Below are positions 50,005 to 62,164 of a DNA stretch of 64,000 nucleotides, piece after piece. The first letter of the stretch is position 1. Each line of letters begins with the position of its first letter. The position numbers and the translations under genes are program-made. This DNA is from Conexibacter woesei Iso977N. GTDB taxonomy: Bacteria; Actinomycetota; Thermoleophilia; Solirubrobacterales; Solirubrobacteraceae. The notes beneath the pieces were generated by a model. It searched no databases. It was not told where the DNA came from and saw only the letters and a program-made list of their open reading frames with translations. The stretch covers positions 1 through 64,000 of the forward strand of contig NZ_AUKG01000004.1 of NCBI RefSeq assembly GCF_000424625.1. Direction: 5' to 3'.

Positions 50005-52026
50005 CTACGCGGCGGCGCGCAGCACCGGCGTGTCGTCGGCGCGCAGGTCCTCCAGCGCGGCGCGGAACGCGGCGACGACCGCCGGATCGAACTGCGCGCC
50101 CGCGCAGCGCTCCAGCTCGGCCAGCGCGACGTGCTCGGGCAGCGCGGCGCGGTACGGGCGGTCGGCGACCATCGCGTCGAACGAGTCGCAGACGCTGACG
50201 ATCCGCGCGCCGAGGGGGATCTCGTCGCCCCTCAGGCCGTCCGGGTAGCCGCCGCCGTCGTGGCGCTCGTGCGAGGCGCGGACCAGGAACGCGACCTCGC
50301 TCAGCGCGGGCGCGGCAGCGACGATCCGCTCACCGATGACCGTGTGGCGGCGCATGAAGACCCACTCCTCGTCGTCCAGCGGGCCGGGCTTGTCGAGGAT
50401 CGCGTCCGGGATCGCGACCTTGCCGACGTCGTGCAGGTCGGCCGCGTGGCGGACCTGCTCGACCTCGACCGGCGACAGGCCCATCGTGGTCGCGACCGCG
50501 ACCGCCAGCTCGGCGACCTGCGAGAGGTGCTCGCCGAGGTCCGGGTTGCGCTCGGCCAGCGCGCGCAGCAGCACGTCGCGCGACTGCGAACCCGCGGACT
50601 TGCGGCCGCCGTGCTTCTGGGCGTACATGCGCTGGTCGGCGAGGCGCAGCGCCTCGGCCGGGTCGGTGACCTCGGCGGGCGTTACGACGAAGCCGTGCGA
50701 GGAGCCGATGTCGAAGCCCTCGCCACGCTCGCGCAGCGCGGCCGCGGCGTTGGCGGCGACCAGCGCGGGCCGCGCGAGCCTCGGGCGCAGCAGCGCGCAG
50801 AACTCGTCGCCGCCCATCCGGTAGGCGCGCCCATGGCTCGCGACGGCGCGGGCGAGGTTGCCGCCGAGGCGGACGAGCAGGTCGTCGCCGGCCGGGTGGC
50901 CGTAGCAGTCGTTGTAGTGCTTGAAGCCGTCGAGGTCGAACAGCGCCAGGACGACCGGCTCGCCGCCCTCGGTGGCGCCGGCGATCGCGCGCTCCAGGTC
51001 CTGGGTCAGCGCGCGGCGGTTGCCGAGGCCGGTCAGGGCGTCGGTGAACGCCTCGCGGCGCGTGGCCTCCAACATGGTGGCGTTGTCGGCGAAGGCGATG
51101 TACAACCGGATCCCGACCGCGAACAGCGCCAGGCCCGCGAGGACGACCGCGGTCGGCGTCACGGTCCCGAGACCCGCGTAGACCAGGACGCCCAGCGCGG
51201 TCGCGCCGAAGGCCAGCGGCAGGATCGTCGCACGCTTGCGCCCCTGCCCCTCGCGCGCGGCGACCGCGACGCGGACCGGGACCACCGCCGCGACCGACAA
51301 CATCAGGAACGCGAAGTCCCAGCCCGCGTCCCACGGGTCCGGGAAGCCGCCGCCGCCCTGGGCGACGGCCACGAGGTAGTGCGAGTCCGCGGTCCAGAAC
51401 GAGACGATGCCCACGCCCGCCAGCGCCCAGGACCAGTCGAAGCGCCAGCCGCGCACGGCCATCGCCGCGACGACCAACCCCAGCAGGATCAGATCGCTGA
51501 GCGGGTAGGCGACGTTGGTCGCCACCGACTTCCAGTCGCCGCCGATCGAGTCCACGAACCCCGGGACGACGATCGCCGCAGCCACCGCGGAGACCGCGAG
51601 CGCCGCGGTGATCCCGTCGACCCACATCCGCCTCGGCGCGCCGTGCACGCGCGCGGTCAGCACGCGCGCCAGCCCGGCGAAGGCGAGGACGGGGAACGCG
51701 AGGTAGCCGAAGTCCGAGACCGACGGGACCGGGATCGTGTCCTTCTGCGACAGCACCGCCGTCCAGTAGACGTCGCCCGCCGCCCAGCAGATCGTCCCGA
51801 TCGCGACGAGCATCCACGCCAGCCGCATCGGGCCGCGCACGCGCCAGGCCGCGAGCGCGCACAGCACGCCCGAGCCGAAGTCGACGACGAGGTGCGACGA
51901 GCGTCCGAAGAGCAGGCCGGTGTGCGGGAACGCGCCGGTCAGCAGGTTCAGCTCGAACGCGGCCAGCCAGAGACCCAGCGCGCCGAGCGCCCAGAGGTGC
52001 AGCCGAGGGTGCGAGCGATCCCCCAC
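50005..52026 (-). CDS. Membrane-bound GGDEF plus HD-GYP-like signalling protein
   Basis: A 673-residue protein. Residues 1-300 form about nine membrane helices. A GGDEF diguanylate cyclase domain follows (about 325-480) with the signature RMGGDEF intact and FDLDGFKHYNDCYGH as its metal and base site. A C-terminal HD-GYP-type domain (about 490-660) has HDVGKVAIPD and SHERHDGGGYPDG. In the second motif a Ser replaces the first His of the classic HHE, so phosphodiesterase activity is doubtful. The protein probably makes or senses cyclic di-GMP at the membrane. GTG 52026 lies 17 bp after the M24 peptidase gene, so it may end that long operon. Confidence 0.87.
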   Translation of the reverse strand: MGDRSHPRLHLWALGALGLWLAAFELNLLTGAFPHTGLLFGRSSHLVVDFGSGVLCALAAWRVRGPMRLAWMLVAIGTICWAAGDVYWTAVLSQKDTIPVPSVSDFGYLAFPVLAFAGLARVLTARVHGAPRRMWVDGITAALAVSAVAAAIVVPGFVDSIGGDWKSVATNVAYPLSDLILLGLVVAAMAVRGWRFDWSWALAGVGIVSFWTADSHYLVAVAQGGGGFPDPWDAGWDFAFLMLSVAAVVPVRVAVAAREGQGRKRATILPLAFGATALGVLVYAGLGTVTPTAVVLAGLALFAVGIRLYIAFADNATMLEATRREAFTDALTGLGNRRALTQDLERAIAGATEGGEPVVLALFDLDGFKHYNDCYGHPAGDDLLVRLGGNLARAVASHGRAYRMGGDEFCALLRPRLARPALVAANAAAALRERGEGFDIGSSHGFVVTPAEVTDPAEALRLADQRMYAQKHGGRKSAGSQSRDVLLRALAERNPDLGEHLSQVAELAVAVATTMGLSPVEVEQVRHAADLHDVGKVAIPDAILDKPGPLDDEEWVFMRRHTVIGERIVAAAPALSEVAFLVRASHERHDGGGYPDGLRGDEIPLGARIVSVCDSFDAMVADRPYRAALPEHVALAELERCAGAQFDPAVVAAFRAALEDLRADDTPVLRAAA

Positions 52027-58112: not shown

Positions 58113-58939
58113 CAGTTGGTCCCCCCGGGCGTCGTGGTGGACGCCGGAGTCGAGGTCGAGGCGGGCGTTGCGGTCGAGCCCGGCGTCGCGGTGCTCGCCG
58201 GCGTCGTGCTGGACGCGGGTGTGACCTGCGACGCGGTCGTCGTGGTCCCGGCGGCATCGATGTTGGTCACCGAGGTCGCGATCTGGCCGGTCGTGGCCTT
58301 GAAGAACACGTCCACGTTGAAGATCGGGAACTTGGCGTGCCCGCCGCGGCAGTCGGAGCTTGCGCCGCCGCCGCCGTTGCCGGCCGCGCCCTTCGTGGAG
58401 TCCTCGAGGCTGACACGGTCGACGCCGTTGACGAGGCGCAGGCGGGTCAGCAGCCCGGACACGGCGGCCTGGCTGGTCGTGCAGCCGGAGATGACGATCG
58501 CCGGCTCCGACAGGCCCTGGCGCAGCGCGCCGGCGGTGCCGCCGCTGACCGTGACGCCCGGCGACGTGGTCGCCGTCATCGAGGTCAGCCAGGCGTTGCG
58601 CGGCAGGTTGGCGGCGACCTCGCGCAACGCGTGCGCCCAGTCGAAGCGCGCGGCCGCGAGCTGCTTGACGGTGTCGACGCGCTTCTGGCGGATCGACGCG
58701 AACTTGGTGTAGGCGGTCAGCGACCCGGCCTTGGCCTCGGCCGCGGTGGCCTCGGCGTTCAGCGAGGCGACCTTGGCCTGCTTGTCGGAGACCGACCTGT
58801 CGGCGCTGAAGAAGAGCGCGGCCATCGCGACGACGAGCGCGAGCCCGCCGAGCACGAAGTACGCGCCGCCGCCGGACTTGCCCGCGACGCCGCCGGCGCC
58901 GCGCTGCTGGTCGGACGGGATGAGGTTGACAGCCCTCAT
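58112..58939 (-). CDS. pilN: Type IV pilus assembly protein PilN
   Basis: A 275-residue PilN-like protein. The short cytoplasmic N-terminus begins MRAVNLIPSDQQRG, matching the NLLP-type motif that docks into PilM, followed by a membrane helix (about 27-46), coiled coil, and a ferredoxin-like domain (about 100-215, with SGCTTSQAAVSGLLTRLRLVNGVDRVSL). The last 45 residues are a Thr/Ser/Pro/Ala repeat (TPAST-like units). The start overlaps the pilM stop (ATGA). Confidence 0.87.
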   Translation of the reverse strand: MRAVNLIPSDQQRGAGGVAGKSGGGAYFVLGGLALVVAMAALFFSADRSVSDKQAKVASLNAEATAAEAKAGSLTAYTKFASIRQKRVDTVKQLAAARFDWAHALREVAANLPRNAWLTSMTATTSPGVTVSGGTAGALRQGLSEPAIVISGCTTSQAAVSGLLTRLRLVNGVDRVSLEDSTKGAAGNGGGGASSDCRGGHAKFPIFNVDVFFKATTGQIATSVTNIDAAGTTTTASQVTPASSTTPASTATPGSTATPASTSTPASTTTPGGTN

Positions 58940-60000
58940 GCGGCCGGAGCCTCCTCGACGGCCAGGCCGGCCGCGATCGTGAGCAGGTGGGGATCGAGGC
59001 CCTCCGGCGAGCCCTCGAGCACGCCGGACTCGACCGGCAGGCCGAGCTCGGCGGCGAGCGCGTCGTCGAAGCCGGGCACGGTGGCCGCGGCGCCGGTGAG
59101 CACGGCCCGCTGGACGCGCAGGCTCATGCCCTCCTGGGCGTGGTGGAAGTCGAGCGAGTTGCGGACCTCGCCGCCGATGCGGCGGACGCCGTCCAGCAGG
59201 ACCGTGCGGGCCTCCTGGGCGATCTCGTCCTGGTCGTCGGACTCGATCTCGCTGAGCGGCAGGACCAGGCCGACGTGGCGCAGCCAGCCCCGCGCATGCT
59301 CCAGCGTCAGCGCCTTGCGCTCGGCGAGCTCGACGGCGATGGCCTCGAGGCCGCCGCCGACGACGCGGGTGAAGAGGCAGGTCGTGCCCTCGGCGACCGC
59401 GAGGTTCGTGAGGCCGCCGACCGAGAGGTAGAGGACCGGCTCGGCGGGCGCGAGCGGGTCGGCCGGGGCGCGGTGCAGCGCGCGGATCATCGCGAAGGCC
59501 GAGAGGTCGATGCCCTCGGGCTTCAGGCCCGCGGCCTTCGCGGCGGCCATGACGCGGTCGATCATGTCGCGGCGGGCCGCGACGATCAGGACGCGCTGGC
59601 GCTTGCCGTGCTCGGTCTCGACGATGTCCAGCGGCTGGAAGTCCAGCACGGCGGAGTCGAGCGGCATCGGGATCTGGTCCTGGGCCTGGAAGCGGACGGC
59701 CGCCTCGAGCTCCTTGCGGTCCTCGAGCGGTGGGAGCTCCAGAACGCGGACGACGATCTTCTGGTTGGCGATGCCGATGCGGACCTTCTTGTCGAGGCCC
59801 TTGTTGTCGCGGTAGAGCGACTTCAGAGCTTCGGCGAGGGCGTCGACGTCGTTGACCTCGCCGTCCCGGACGATGCCGGTCTCCAGCGGGGCGACGGCTG
59901 CGGTCTTGACGGAGACGACCCCGTTGACCGACACCGATGCGGCGTGGACGGCCGAAGGCTCGATCTCGAGTCCGACGATGTTGGTTGCGCGCTTGGCCAT
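58936..60000 (-). CDS. pilM: Type IV pilus assembly ATPase-fold protein PilM
   Basis: A 354-residue cytoplasmic actin/FtsA-fold protein. NIVGLEIEPSAVHAASV is the phosphate-1 loop, VRFQAQDQIPMPLDSAVLDFQ the PilM/PilN contact region, LYLSVGGLTNLAVAEG the phosphate-2 loop and AVLTGAAATVPGFDDALAAELG the adenosine loop. It anchors PilN and the membrane platform on the inside. It heads the pilMNO gene group, preceded by a 127-bp gap after pilD. Confidence 0.9.
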   Translation of the reverse strand: MAKRATNIVGLEIEPSAVHAASVSVNGVVSVKTAAVAPLETGIVRDGEVNDVDALAEALKSLYRDNKGLDKKVRIGIANQKIVVRVLELPPLEDRKELEAAVRFQAQDQIPMPLDSAVLDFQPLDIVETEHGKRQRVLIVAARRDMIDRVMAAAKAAGLKPEGIDLSAFAMIRALHRAPADPLAPAEPVLYLSVGGLTNLAVAEGTTCLFTRVVGGGLEAIAVELAERKALTLEHARGWLRHVGLVLPLSEIESDDQDEIAQEARTVLLDGVRRIGGEVRNSLDFHHAQEGMSLRVQRAVLTGAAATVPGFDDALAAELGLPVESGVLEGSPEGLDPHLLTIAAGLAVEEAPAA

Positions 60001-60127
60001 GTTCAGGACGGTGGGTCGGCGATAAGTGGCGGTGCCTCAAGCACACGCCCCGACACCCTCGGTTGTTCGTCCAAGTGGACGGCCGCTTGAGGGCGGGAGA
60101 GGTTCTGGCGTCCGAGCGCCAGGACCG
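60001..60127. other. 127-bp gap between pilD and pilM
   Basis: On the minus strand this gap may hold a promoter for pilMNO. An 8-bp inverted repeat CCTCAAGC (60035-60042) / GCTTGAGG (60085-60092) encloses a smaller one, GTCCA/TGGAC (60069-60080). I see no clear -35/-10 pair and no gene. Confidence 0.3.
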
Positions 60128-60883
60128 CTAGAAACGATCGGTGTAGGAGTCGACGAGCGAGTCGCCGACGAAGAAGGCGATCAGCGCGCCTGCGGCCAGG
60201 AACGGGCCGAACGGGATCTTGACCTTGCGGCCCGCGGTGACGCCGGTGCTGGTCATCACCGCCACGCCGACGACGACGCCGAGGATCAGGGCGATGAAGA
60301 TCGCGGGCGCGACGGCGCGGCCGAGGTAGAGGCCGAGCACGGCGGCGAGCTTGACGTCGCCCATGCCCATGCCCTTCTTGGACAACATCGCGGGCAACAT
60401 GAAGAAGATCAGCGCGGCGGCGCCGGCGGCCAGCTGCTCGGGCAGGTCGTGCGGCGCGAGCAGCGCGCCGAGGACGATCGCCAGGACGGCGGCGGGCGCG
60501 GTCAGCGCGTTGGGGATGCGCCTGACGTCGAGGTCGATGACCGCGATCGGCACGAGGAACGTGACGAGCACGAGGCCGAGGACGAGCTGCGCGGCATCGT
60601 CGTGCTTGACGGCGACGACCAAGGCGTACAACGCGCCGGTCACCGCCTCCACGACGGGATAGCGCGCCGAGATCGACGTCTTGCAGTTGCGGCAACGCCC
60701 GCGCAGGACGAGCCACGAGAAGAGCGGGATGTTGTCGTAGGCCTTGAGCTGCGTGTCGCAGCCGGGGCACTTCGAGCGCGGCTTGACGAGCGACTCGCCG
60801 CGCGGGAGGCGCCAGGCGACGACGTTCAGGAACGAGCCGATGATGAGGCCGAAGAGAGCGGCCGGTGCGAGCGCGGGAGCCAT
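60128..60883 (-). CDS. pilD: Prepilin peptidase / N-methyltransferase
   Basis: A 251-residue polytopic aspartic protease that cleaves and methylates type IV prepilins. The N-terminal methylase part has GSFLNVVAWRLPRGESL and the two zinc CxxC pairs (CPGCDTQL, CRNCKTSIS). The catalytic aspartates are in VIDLDVRRIPN and in GMGMGDVKLAAVLG (GxGD motif). About eight membrane segments. ATG 60883 with GGTGGTGAC upstream. Its substrates, two prepilins, are encoded just upstream. Confidence 0.93.
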   Translation of the reverse strand: MAPALAPAALFGLIIGSFLNVVAWRLPRGESLVKPRSKCPGCDTQLKAYDNIPLFSWLVLRGRCRNCKTSISARYPVVEAVTGALYALVVAVKHDDAAQLVLGLVLVTFLVPIAVIDLDVRRIPNALTAPAAVLAIVLGALLAPHDLPEQLAAGAAALIFFMLPAMLSKKGMGMGDVKLAAVLGLYLGRAVAPAIFIALILGVVVGVAVMTSTGVTAGRKVKIPFGPFLAAGALIAFFVGDSLVDSYTDRF

Positions 60884-60933
60884 GTCACCACCGTTGATCG
60901 GCAGCGGCCCCCGCGCCCTTGACGCGATGCGTC

Positions 60934-61356
60934 CTACCAGCTGCCGTTGTTGCAGCCGCGGCTGCCGCCGGAGCAGCCGCGCACCAGGCCGGAGCCGGCG
61001 TTGACGTCCTTGCTGATCGTGAATGTGCCGCCGGACCTCGACCTCGCGCTGACGGTGTAGGAGTCGGTGGTCGTGCTGGTGACGTCGACCTGGCCCTGGC
61101 CGGTGCCGATCGGCAGCCCGGTCTCGTCCATCTGGGACGCCGTGCACTTCGTGTAGTCCGTGGTCCCCGCGTAGCAGGACTCGACGTGCTCGACGAGCGA
61201 GCGCGCGTTGGACTTGGCCGACGTGTCCTGGGCCTTCTGCTGCTGGCCGAGGAACGACGGGATCGCGATCGCGGCGAGGATCCCGATGATCAGGATGACG
61301 ACGAGGAGCTCGATCAGCGTGAAGCCGTCGTCCTCGCTGGTGAAGCGGGTGTTCAT
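60934..61356 (-). CDS. pilA: Type IV prepilin 1
   Basis: A 140-residue type IVa-style prepilin. A short charged leader MNTRFTSEDDG is cut before the FTLIELLVVILIIGIL helix, with Glu5 of the mature protein present. Mature positions about 50-65 have CYAGTTDYTKC, and the C-terminus CSGGSRGCNNGSW gives a second cysteine pair, so two disulfide loops are likely. GGGAGAGG precedes ATG 61356. The N-terminal half is nearly identical to the second prepilin upstream. Confidence 0.92.
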   Translation of the reverse strand: MNTRFTSEDDGFTLIELLVVILIIGILAAIAIPSFLGQQQKAQDTSAKSNARSLVEHVESCYAGTTDYTKCTASQMDETGLPIGTGQGQVDVTSTTTDSYTVSARSRSGGTFTISKDVNAGSGLVRGCSGGSRGCNNGSW

Positions 61357-61482: not shown

Positions 61483-61887
61483 TTACCAGGAGGTGCTGGA
61501 GCAGCCGGAGCCCTGGCAGGTACGCGAGACGGTGCCGTCAGAGTTCTTCGTGATGACGTACCTGTTGTTCGACTTCGAGGTCGACGTGATCGTGTACGTC
61601 GTGCCGTCGGAGCTCGGGGTGACCGTGGTCTGGCCCGTGCCGGTGCCGATGGCGATGCCGGAGGTCGAGGTGTTGCAGCCCGTGTAGCTCTGCGCGTCGG
61701 CGTAGCAGGACTCGAGCTGGGTGACCATGTTGCGGGCGTCCGACTTGGCCGACGCGTCCTGGCCCTTCTTCTGCTGGCCGAGGAACGACGGCAGGGCGAT
61801 CGCGGCGAGGATGCCGATGATCAGGATGACGACGAGGAGCTCGATGAGCGTGAAGCCCTCGTCCTCGTTCTTGAAGCGCTGAAGCAA
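61483..61887 (-). CDS. pilA: Type IV prepilin 2 (TTG start)
   Basis: A 134-residue prepilin paralogous to the one downstream. The leader LLQRFKNEDEG is followed by FTLIELLVVILIIGILAAIA, with the same cysteine layout (CYADAQSYTGC and CQGSGCSSTSW). The start is an unusual TTG at 61887: AGGAGGG stands seven bases before it and gives a normal-length leader, whereas the first in-frame ATG lies almost 100 bases upstream in the untranslated leader. The rare start and the pairing potential of its leader suggest that expression is limited at translation. Confidence 0.9.
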   Translation of the reverse strand: MLQRFKNEDEGFTLIELLVVILIIGILAAIALPSFLGQQKKGQDASAKSDARNMVTQLESCYADAQSYTGCNTSTSGIAIGTGTGQTTVTPSSDGTTYTITSTSKSNNRYVITKNSDGTVSRTCQGSGCSSTSW

Positions 61888-62001
61888 GACGATCCCTCCT
61901 GTGAGATCTGGTGTTTGGTCTTCACGTGCGGAGGGTTGACATCCCTCATCGGTCATCCGGGGTCTAGGTCTTTGCAGCAAGCCCCGTCAGTTGCCCGGTG
62001 G
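61888..62001 (-). promoter_or_regulatory. Structured leader of prepilin 2, possible RNA switch
   Basis: Three short segments on the minus strand compete: GAGGG (61947-61943), CCCTCC (61935-61930) and GGAGGG of the ribosome binding site (61899-61894). The first two form a 5-bp hairpin that frees the binding site; the last two form a 6-bp pairing that hides it. Upstream lies a folded-looking block (62001-61943) with GGGCAAC, TGCAAAG and CCCCGG. This is the layout of a switch or attenuator, but the aptamer, if any, was not identified. Confidence 0.4.
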
Positions 62002-62164
62002 TTCCGTCACCGCACAGTCGAAGTTGTCGGCGTGCGCCGGTCCGGCTTGCGCTTCGATGTCCGATTTCTGGACTTCTGTTCTAGGGGGAACACCCCATGC
62101 GGCCCGGCCGTCCTTTACACGGGCGCGCGCTCAAGCGCGGCGCGCGCGCGCCGATCTCGTGGGC

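What the first reader, a model, noticed from the sequence alone, without database searches (positions are those of the whole stretch)
61888..62001. Possible RNA switch controlling the second pilin
GAGGG, CCCTCC and the GGAGGG ribosome binding site can pair in two exclusive ways, one exposing and one hiding the site, and the gene starts with a weak TTG. Upstream is a compact folded block with GGGCAAC, TGCAAAG and a CCGG-rich closing part. Cyclic di-GMP or cGAMP switches control pilin genes in other bacteria, and a GGDEF protein ends this gene block. The resemblance to the GEMM aptamer is slight and judged by eye, so this may be a new class or a simple attenuator.
Basis: partly seen in the sequence, partly recalled or inferred. 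Interest (0 to 1): 0.6.

Follow-up and report, generated by a model that had tools for sequence, protein, structure and literature searches.

The report
Conserved RNA leader of a pilin operon
The stretch in front of a type IV pilin gene is a conserved RNA leader, found in five related soil-actinobacterial genomes, that can hide or expose the gene's ribosome binding site; it sits where many relatives carry a cyclic di-GMP riboswitch but is not one, so it may sense something else.

Summary
The sequence features are real and lie on the minus strand, in the 5' leader of the first pilin gene of a type IV pilus operon. The leader is strongly conserved (65-90% identity over the domain, against 30-53% upstream) in five genomes forming one clade of the genus, one copy each, always before the same pilin. 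No Rfam family matches it, including GEMM (c-di-GMP-I).

In the sister species G006, and in at least 33 of 67 pilin-bearing relatives, the same position holds a clear c-di-GMP-I riboswitch; this clade has a different RNA domain in its place. A terminal Shine-Dalgarno (SD) hairpin is shared across the family and is supported by covariation. Outer-helix and anti-SD pairings give a predicted ON/OFF pair, but within the clade no base pair shows a double compensatory change, and the fold is no more stable than shuffled sequence.

A core, CGGGRCUUGCUGC...ACCU, recurs only in pilin leaders of this clade, also before second or third pilins.

Best reading: a translational cis-regulatory RNA, with trigger unknown (ligand, protein or small RNA). 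A new riboswitch class is possible but unproven; the c-di-GMP/GEMM reading fails for this RNA but correctly points to what its relatives use.

The parts
62069..62096 (-). conserved upstream block GGGGT-N6-CCCTAGaACAgnnGTCCA, probable regulator or promoter element
   Evidence: conserved in the five clade genomes and in pilin promoters of other genera, while the region further upstream is not alignable; function unknown
62024..62031 (-). -10-like box GCCGACAA of a sigma28/WhiG-type promoter (inferred)
   Evidence: GCCGAT/GCCGAC-like box kept about 10 nt before the leader in relatives; resemblance to sigma28 boxes from general knowledge; no sigma70 site found
62010..62016 (-). outer helix, 5' strand UGUGCGG
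   Evidence: pairs 7/7 with 61931-61925 in all five genomes, with two one-sided changes that keep pairing
61925..61931 (-). outer helix, 3' strand CCGCACG
   Evidence: overlaps the anti-SD at 61931-61930
61997..62011 (-). alternative small hairpin GGUG/CACC (exclusive with the outer helix)
   Evidence: four invariant pairs; used in most of the predicted 'free' states
61961..61986 (-). core CGGGGCUUGCUGCAAAGACCUAGACC inside the leader domain
   Evidence: nearly invariant in five genomes; CGGGRCTTGCTGCNA occurs 7 times in 101 family genomes, all before pilins of this clade
61930..61935 (-). anti-SD CCCUCC
   Evidence: complements GGAGGG 61899-61894; present in 4 of 5, replaced by CCUCC elsewhere in G002
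61891..61908 (-). SD hairpin GAUCUC-ACAGGA-GGGAUC
   Evidence: paired in 5/5; the family-wide equivalent is supported by covariation
61894..61899 (-). Shine-Dalgarno GGAGGG
   Evidence: sequence, 6 nt before TTG 61887
61483..61887 (-). pilin gene (first of the operon), TTG start
   Evidence: Pfam N_methyl, 6e-9; start context invariant in five genomes
58936..61356 (-). downstream operon: second pilin 61356-60934, prepilin peptidase about 60883-60128, PilM 60000-58936
   Evidence: Pfam N_methyl, A24_N_bact/Peptidase_A24, PilM_2

Best explanation
A clade-specific cis-regulatory RNA leader that controls translation of the first pilin and, through it, perhaps the pilus operon. Inferred working: transcription starts just after the GCCGACAA box, so the outer-helix strand UGUGCGG lies at the 5' end of the RNA. 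If the inner domain (core CGGGGCUUGCUGCAAAGACCU) is stabilised by its trigger, the outer helix UGUGCGG/CCGCACG closes, takes up the last two bases of the anti-SD CCCUCC, and leaves the SD only in a short local hairpin (ON-leaning). Without the trigger the outer helix opens, CCCUCC pairs with GGAGGG, and translation is off. Shown: conservation, position, absence of known families, pairing potential and the predicted change in SD exposure. Inferred: transcription start, translational control, direction of the switch, and the trigger, which may be a small ligand, a protein or a small RNA.
For: Leader 65-90% identical in five genomes versus 30-53% upstream; found only before this pilin in 232 genomes of the order with model R1; same position as the GEMM in G006 and other relatives; similar 3' ends, for example GAAGAGGCCAAACGAGATCCAGGAGGATC in the GEMM leader L005 and AGAAGGCCAAACCTAGATCTCACAGGAGGGATC in G005; SD hairpin: 18 of 58 family leaders with at least 5 pairs, against 1.7 in shuffles and 8.9 (max 17) when upstream parts are permuted; folding: mean SD unpaired 0.02-0.17 free and 0.48-0.50 with the outer helix forced, ensemble cost 1.6-8.4 kcal/mol.
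Against: No double compensatory change in five sequences, and shuffles do as well; folding energy not below shuffles; a 7-bp partner for the 5' strand arises in 6-21% of shuffles; the CCCUCC anti-SD is missing in G002; even with the outer helix formed the SD is partly paired; no expression or binding data.
Confidence: 0.62

Rival explanations
1. A binding site in the leader for a protein or small RNA (core CGGGRCUUGCUGC...ACCU), used in trans to coordinate several pilins, with no small-molecule ligand. (This and the next item are the two main ways to fill in the trigger left open in the best explanation.)
For: The core recurs before second/third pilins of G001, G004 and G005 in otherwise unrelated leaders; CUUGCUGC is predicted in or near a loop in several clade leaders.
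Against: The second-type leaders keep only the core; the whole 130-nt leader of the first pilin, including the outer helix and SD region, is conserved, which is more than a binding site needs. No partner known.
Confidence: 0.35
2. A ligand-binding riboswitch of a new class that took the place of GEMM.
For: Same slot, platform and gene as GEMM in relatives; compact conserved domain closed by a helix at the RNA 5' end; predicted bistability.
Against: Known in one clade and one gene only, so neither consensus nor covariation can be established; no ligand evidence.
Confidence: 0.27
3. A degenerate or variant GEMM aptamer still binding c-di-GMP or cGAMP.
For: G006 has GEMM in the same slot; G000 still uses a c-di-GMP-I-GGC riboswitch elsewhere; superficial GGGCAAC / GCAAAG resemblance.
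Against: No RF01051 or RF03167 match at E up to 10; GGGCAAC and GCAAAG are not conserved in the clade (GGGAGAU, GGGCGUA; GCCAAG, GCUCAAG); no P2/P3 architecture.
Confidence: 0.06
4. A DNA operator downstream of the promoter (TTGCTGCAA is a near-palindrome), with the RNA incidental.
For: Core short and partly palindromic in G000 and G001.
Against: The palindrome is broken or shifted in G002, G004 and G005; conservation runs through linker and SD.
Confidence: 0.1
5. Part of a longer pilin coding region (upstream start).
For: The frame is open to TTG 61980.
Against: One-base indels shift the frame between relatives, and a good SD precedes the conserved TTG 61887.
Confidence: 0.03

Closest known systems
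c-di-GMP-I riboswitch (GEMM, RF01051) before pilin genes of Solirubrobacterales relatives
   Same: Position between a GCCGAT-type promoter and the pilin, SD hairpin after it, same gene
   Different: Aptamer sequence and structure absent; different outer helix (GUGCGG/CCGCAC, where GEMM leaders have GCCAG/CUGGC)
cGAMP (GEMM-Ib) riboswitches of Geobacter (PMC8835794)
   Same: Riboswitch class tied to a second messenger and to surface functions
   Different: Those are GEMM RNAs; this is not
[quoted passage not shown] 2015, cited in PMC6916266; class II from general knowledge)
   Same: Riboswitch control of type IV pili
   Different: No Rfam match of this leader to any c-di-GMP class; other phylum
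Orphan riboswitch candidates found by comparative genomics (for example PMC2864571)
   Same: Conserved leader, unknown ligand
   Different: Those usually have many diverse members with covariation; this has five close ones

Membership tests
c-di-GMP-I / GEMM (RF01051, RF03167) | covariance model match | tested here: not met
   no match at gathering score nor at E up to 10 in the leader; positive controls G006, L003, L005 and L039 found
c-di-GMP-I / GEMM (RF01051, RF03167) | conserved GGCAAAC and GACGCAAAGCC ligand-site strands | tested here: not met
   corresponding bases not conserved in the clade alignment
c-di-GMP-I / GEMM (RF01051, RF03167) | c-di-GMP or cGAMP binding | not testable with these tools
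   needs in-line probing
Any Rfam family | match above gathering score | tested here: not met
   permissive hits are unrelated, below cut-off and not shared by the five leaders
Riboswitch (generic) | conserved aptamer with covarying pairs | tested here: inconclusive
   strong conservation but no double changes in five sequences
Riboswitch (generic) | expression platform with exclusive structures | tested here: inconclusive
   predicted in five of five, but the elements are within the reach of chance singly
Riboswitch (generic) | ligand-dependent control | not testable with these tools
   experiment needed
Intrinsic-terminator attenuator | stable GC stem followed by a U run in the leader | tested here: not met
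   on this strand only the SD hairpin, with a weak tail that runs into the start codon, was flagged

The most novel reading that the evidence does not exclude
A new riboswitch class that replaced the ancestral c-di-GMP riboswitch in front of the pilus operon, keeping the outer-helix and SD-hairpin layout: a natural aptamer swap that rewires the pilus to another signal.
Probability: 0.22. Interest if true: 0.78.

Novelty: new variant of a known kind. Interest (0 to 1): 0.5.

Why it matters
Riboswitch aptamers are usually thought of as ancient and retained. Here related species keep the same pilin, a similar promoter and a similar SD hairpin, but the sensor in the middle is a c-di-GMP riboswitch in one and an unknown conserved RNA in others. 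If the unknown domain senses a ligand, it is a new class and a natural case of sensor exchange; if it binds a protein or small RNA, it marks a switch from ligand to trans control. The core element is also specific enough to pull out its partner.

Tried and rejected
GEMM or a GEMM variant (Rfam strict and permissive: no match). Folding stability as evidence (no better than shuffles). Long-range helix in GEMM leaders by generic best-helix search: not above permutations or shuffles, although GCCAG and CUGGC are both present in most of the 24 leaders by eye; counted as suggestive only. Wider members: BLAST and model R1 across 232 genomes of the order and a gapped pattern in 399 genomes of the class gave nothing outside the clade beyond background (the CCTGCTGC matches look like chance, close to the reversed-pattern controls). 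Coding extension (frame broken by indels). Terminator-type attenuation (no U run). I thought the clade leader might be a GEMM with its body deleted (similarity around CCACCGGGG..UGACG to L003); not tested, left as an idea. Literature: no paper in the held library on riboswitches in Conexibacter.

Full report
Place and gene. The finding lies on the minus strand, in front of a pilin gene that starts with TTG at 61887. Pfam identifies the pilin methylation motif, and the following genes are a second pilin, a prepilin peptidase and PilM. In the direction of transcription this pilin is the first of the operon, so the leader heads the pilus gene block. A GGDEF-containing frame lies at 50814 on the same strand.

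Observation. The CCCTCC anti-SD and the GGAGGG SD can pair, and this excludes the local SD hairpin. Single occurrences are not remarkable: shuffled leaders contain the six-base anti-SD in 4-7% of cases and a seven-pair partner for the 5' strand in 6-21%. The fold is not more stable than shuffled sequence. The case therefore rests on comparison, not on energy.

Comparison inside the clade. Four other genomes of the same genus (G001, G002, G004, G005) carry the same leader before the same pilin. The domain is 65-90% identical in pairs while the sequence upstream of the promoter is 30-53% identical, barely alignable. One-base indels show it is not coding. A covariance model built from the five finds exactly these five and nothing convincing elsewhere in 232 genomes of the order. 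In a chorismate synthase tree the five are one clade (support 0.997) and G006, labelled the same genus, lies outside (a single-gene tree, and deep nodes are weak). G003, the seventh genome of the genus, gave only a distant pilin and no leader, and its assembly is incomplete.

What the relatives have. RF01051, the c-di-GMP-I riboswitch, occurs at least 36 times within 61-135 nt upstream of the matched pilin stretch, in 33 of 67 pilin-bearing relatives (from the lists; the first two were truncated, so this is a lower bound). G006 has it at the orthologous pilin (48 bits). G000 itself keeps a c-di-GMP-I-GGC riboswitch before a secreted glycosidase-like gene (the gene's function was judged by eye). 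So c-di-GMP riboswitches are normal in this group, and the window's clade lacks one exactly here. The leader itself gives no GEMM match even at E 10. That GEMM was ancestral and was replaced is parsimony, not proof.

Shared platform. Pilin leaders of the family end in a hairpin around the SD, such as GAUCC-AAGGA-GGAUC, GAAUCC-AAGGA-GGAUUC and AGUCC-UGAGGA-GGACU. Eighteen of 58 distinct leaders have at least five consecutive pairs, against 1.7 on average in shuffles and 8.9 (maximum 17 in 1000) when upstream parts are exchanged among leaders, so part of the signal is covariation. The window's version is GAUCUC-ACAGGA-GGGAUC (61908-61891). The text just before it also resembles a GEMM-bearing leader (L005 against G005).

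Predicted switch. With no constraint all five RNAs bury the SD (mean unpaired 0.02-0.17). With the outer helix UGUGCGG/CCGCACG forced, the SD hairpin forms and the mean rises to 0.48-0.50, at a cost of 1.6-8.4 kcal/mol, a range a ligand or protein could plausibly pay. The outer helix is paired in 100% of cells with two one-sided changes, and no pair changes on both sides, so the clade alignment does not prove it. In G002 the anti-SD lies at a different place.

The core. CGGGRCTTGCTGCNA was found seven times in 101 genomes of the family, every time before a pilin of this clade, including second or third pilins of G001, G004 and G005 whose leaders otherwise differ. The reversed-pattern control gave scattered single matches. 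In 399 genomes of the class the gapped pattern with CTTGCTGC again matched only clade pilins. The shared core continues as ACCU(W)GACC in most copies. This is the most specific piece of the finding and could be the aptamer heart or a binding site for a trans factor.

Verdict. A real, conserved cis-regulatory leader of a known general kind, outside known families, in the slot of a c-di-GMP riboswitch. Ligand, partner and direction are open. What is shown is sequence conservation, placement, absence of Rfam families, and pairing potential; transcription start, translational control and the trigger are inferred.

Noticed in passing
pilin leaders of the family, for example L003, L005, L035, L059, L060: SD-sequestering hairpin with covarying arms directly before pilin start codons, with or without a GEMM upstream.
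   Followed up: yes
window 62096-62069 and equivalents: Conserved block GGGGT-N6-CCCTAGnACAgnCGTCCA upstream of a GCCGAT box in pilin promoters of the family; looks like a regulator site or second promoter.
   Followed up: partly
L172 1502 (-), L173 1502 (+), L174 1502 (-), L178 909 (+): Core CGGGACTTGCTGCAACCTG before second/third pilins of G001, G004 and G005.
   Followed up: partly
L144 1825-1899 (+): c-di-GMP-I-GGC riboswitch of the window's own genome before a secreted glycosidase-like gene.
   Followed up: partly
L058, L061, L008 pilin leaders: Leaders that look like decayed or deleted GEMM riboswitches in other genera; repeated loss of the c-di-GMP switch may be common.
   Followed up: no
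GEMM pilin leaders: GCCAG shortly before GEMM and CUGGC shortly before the SD hairpin in most of 24 leaders, possibly an outer helix; not significant in a generic helix test.
   Followed up: partly
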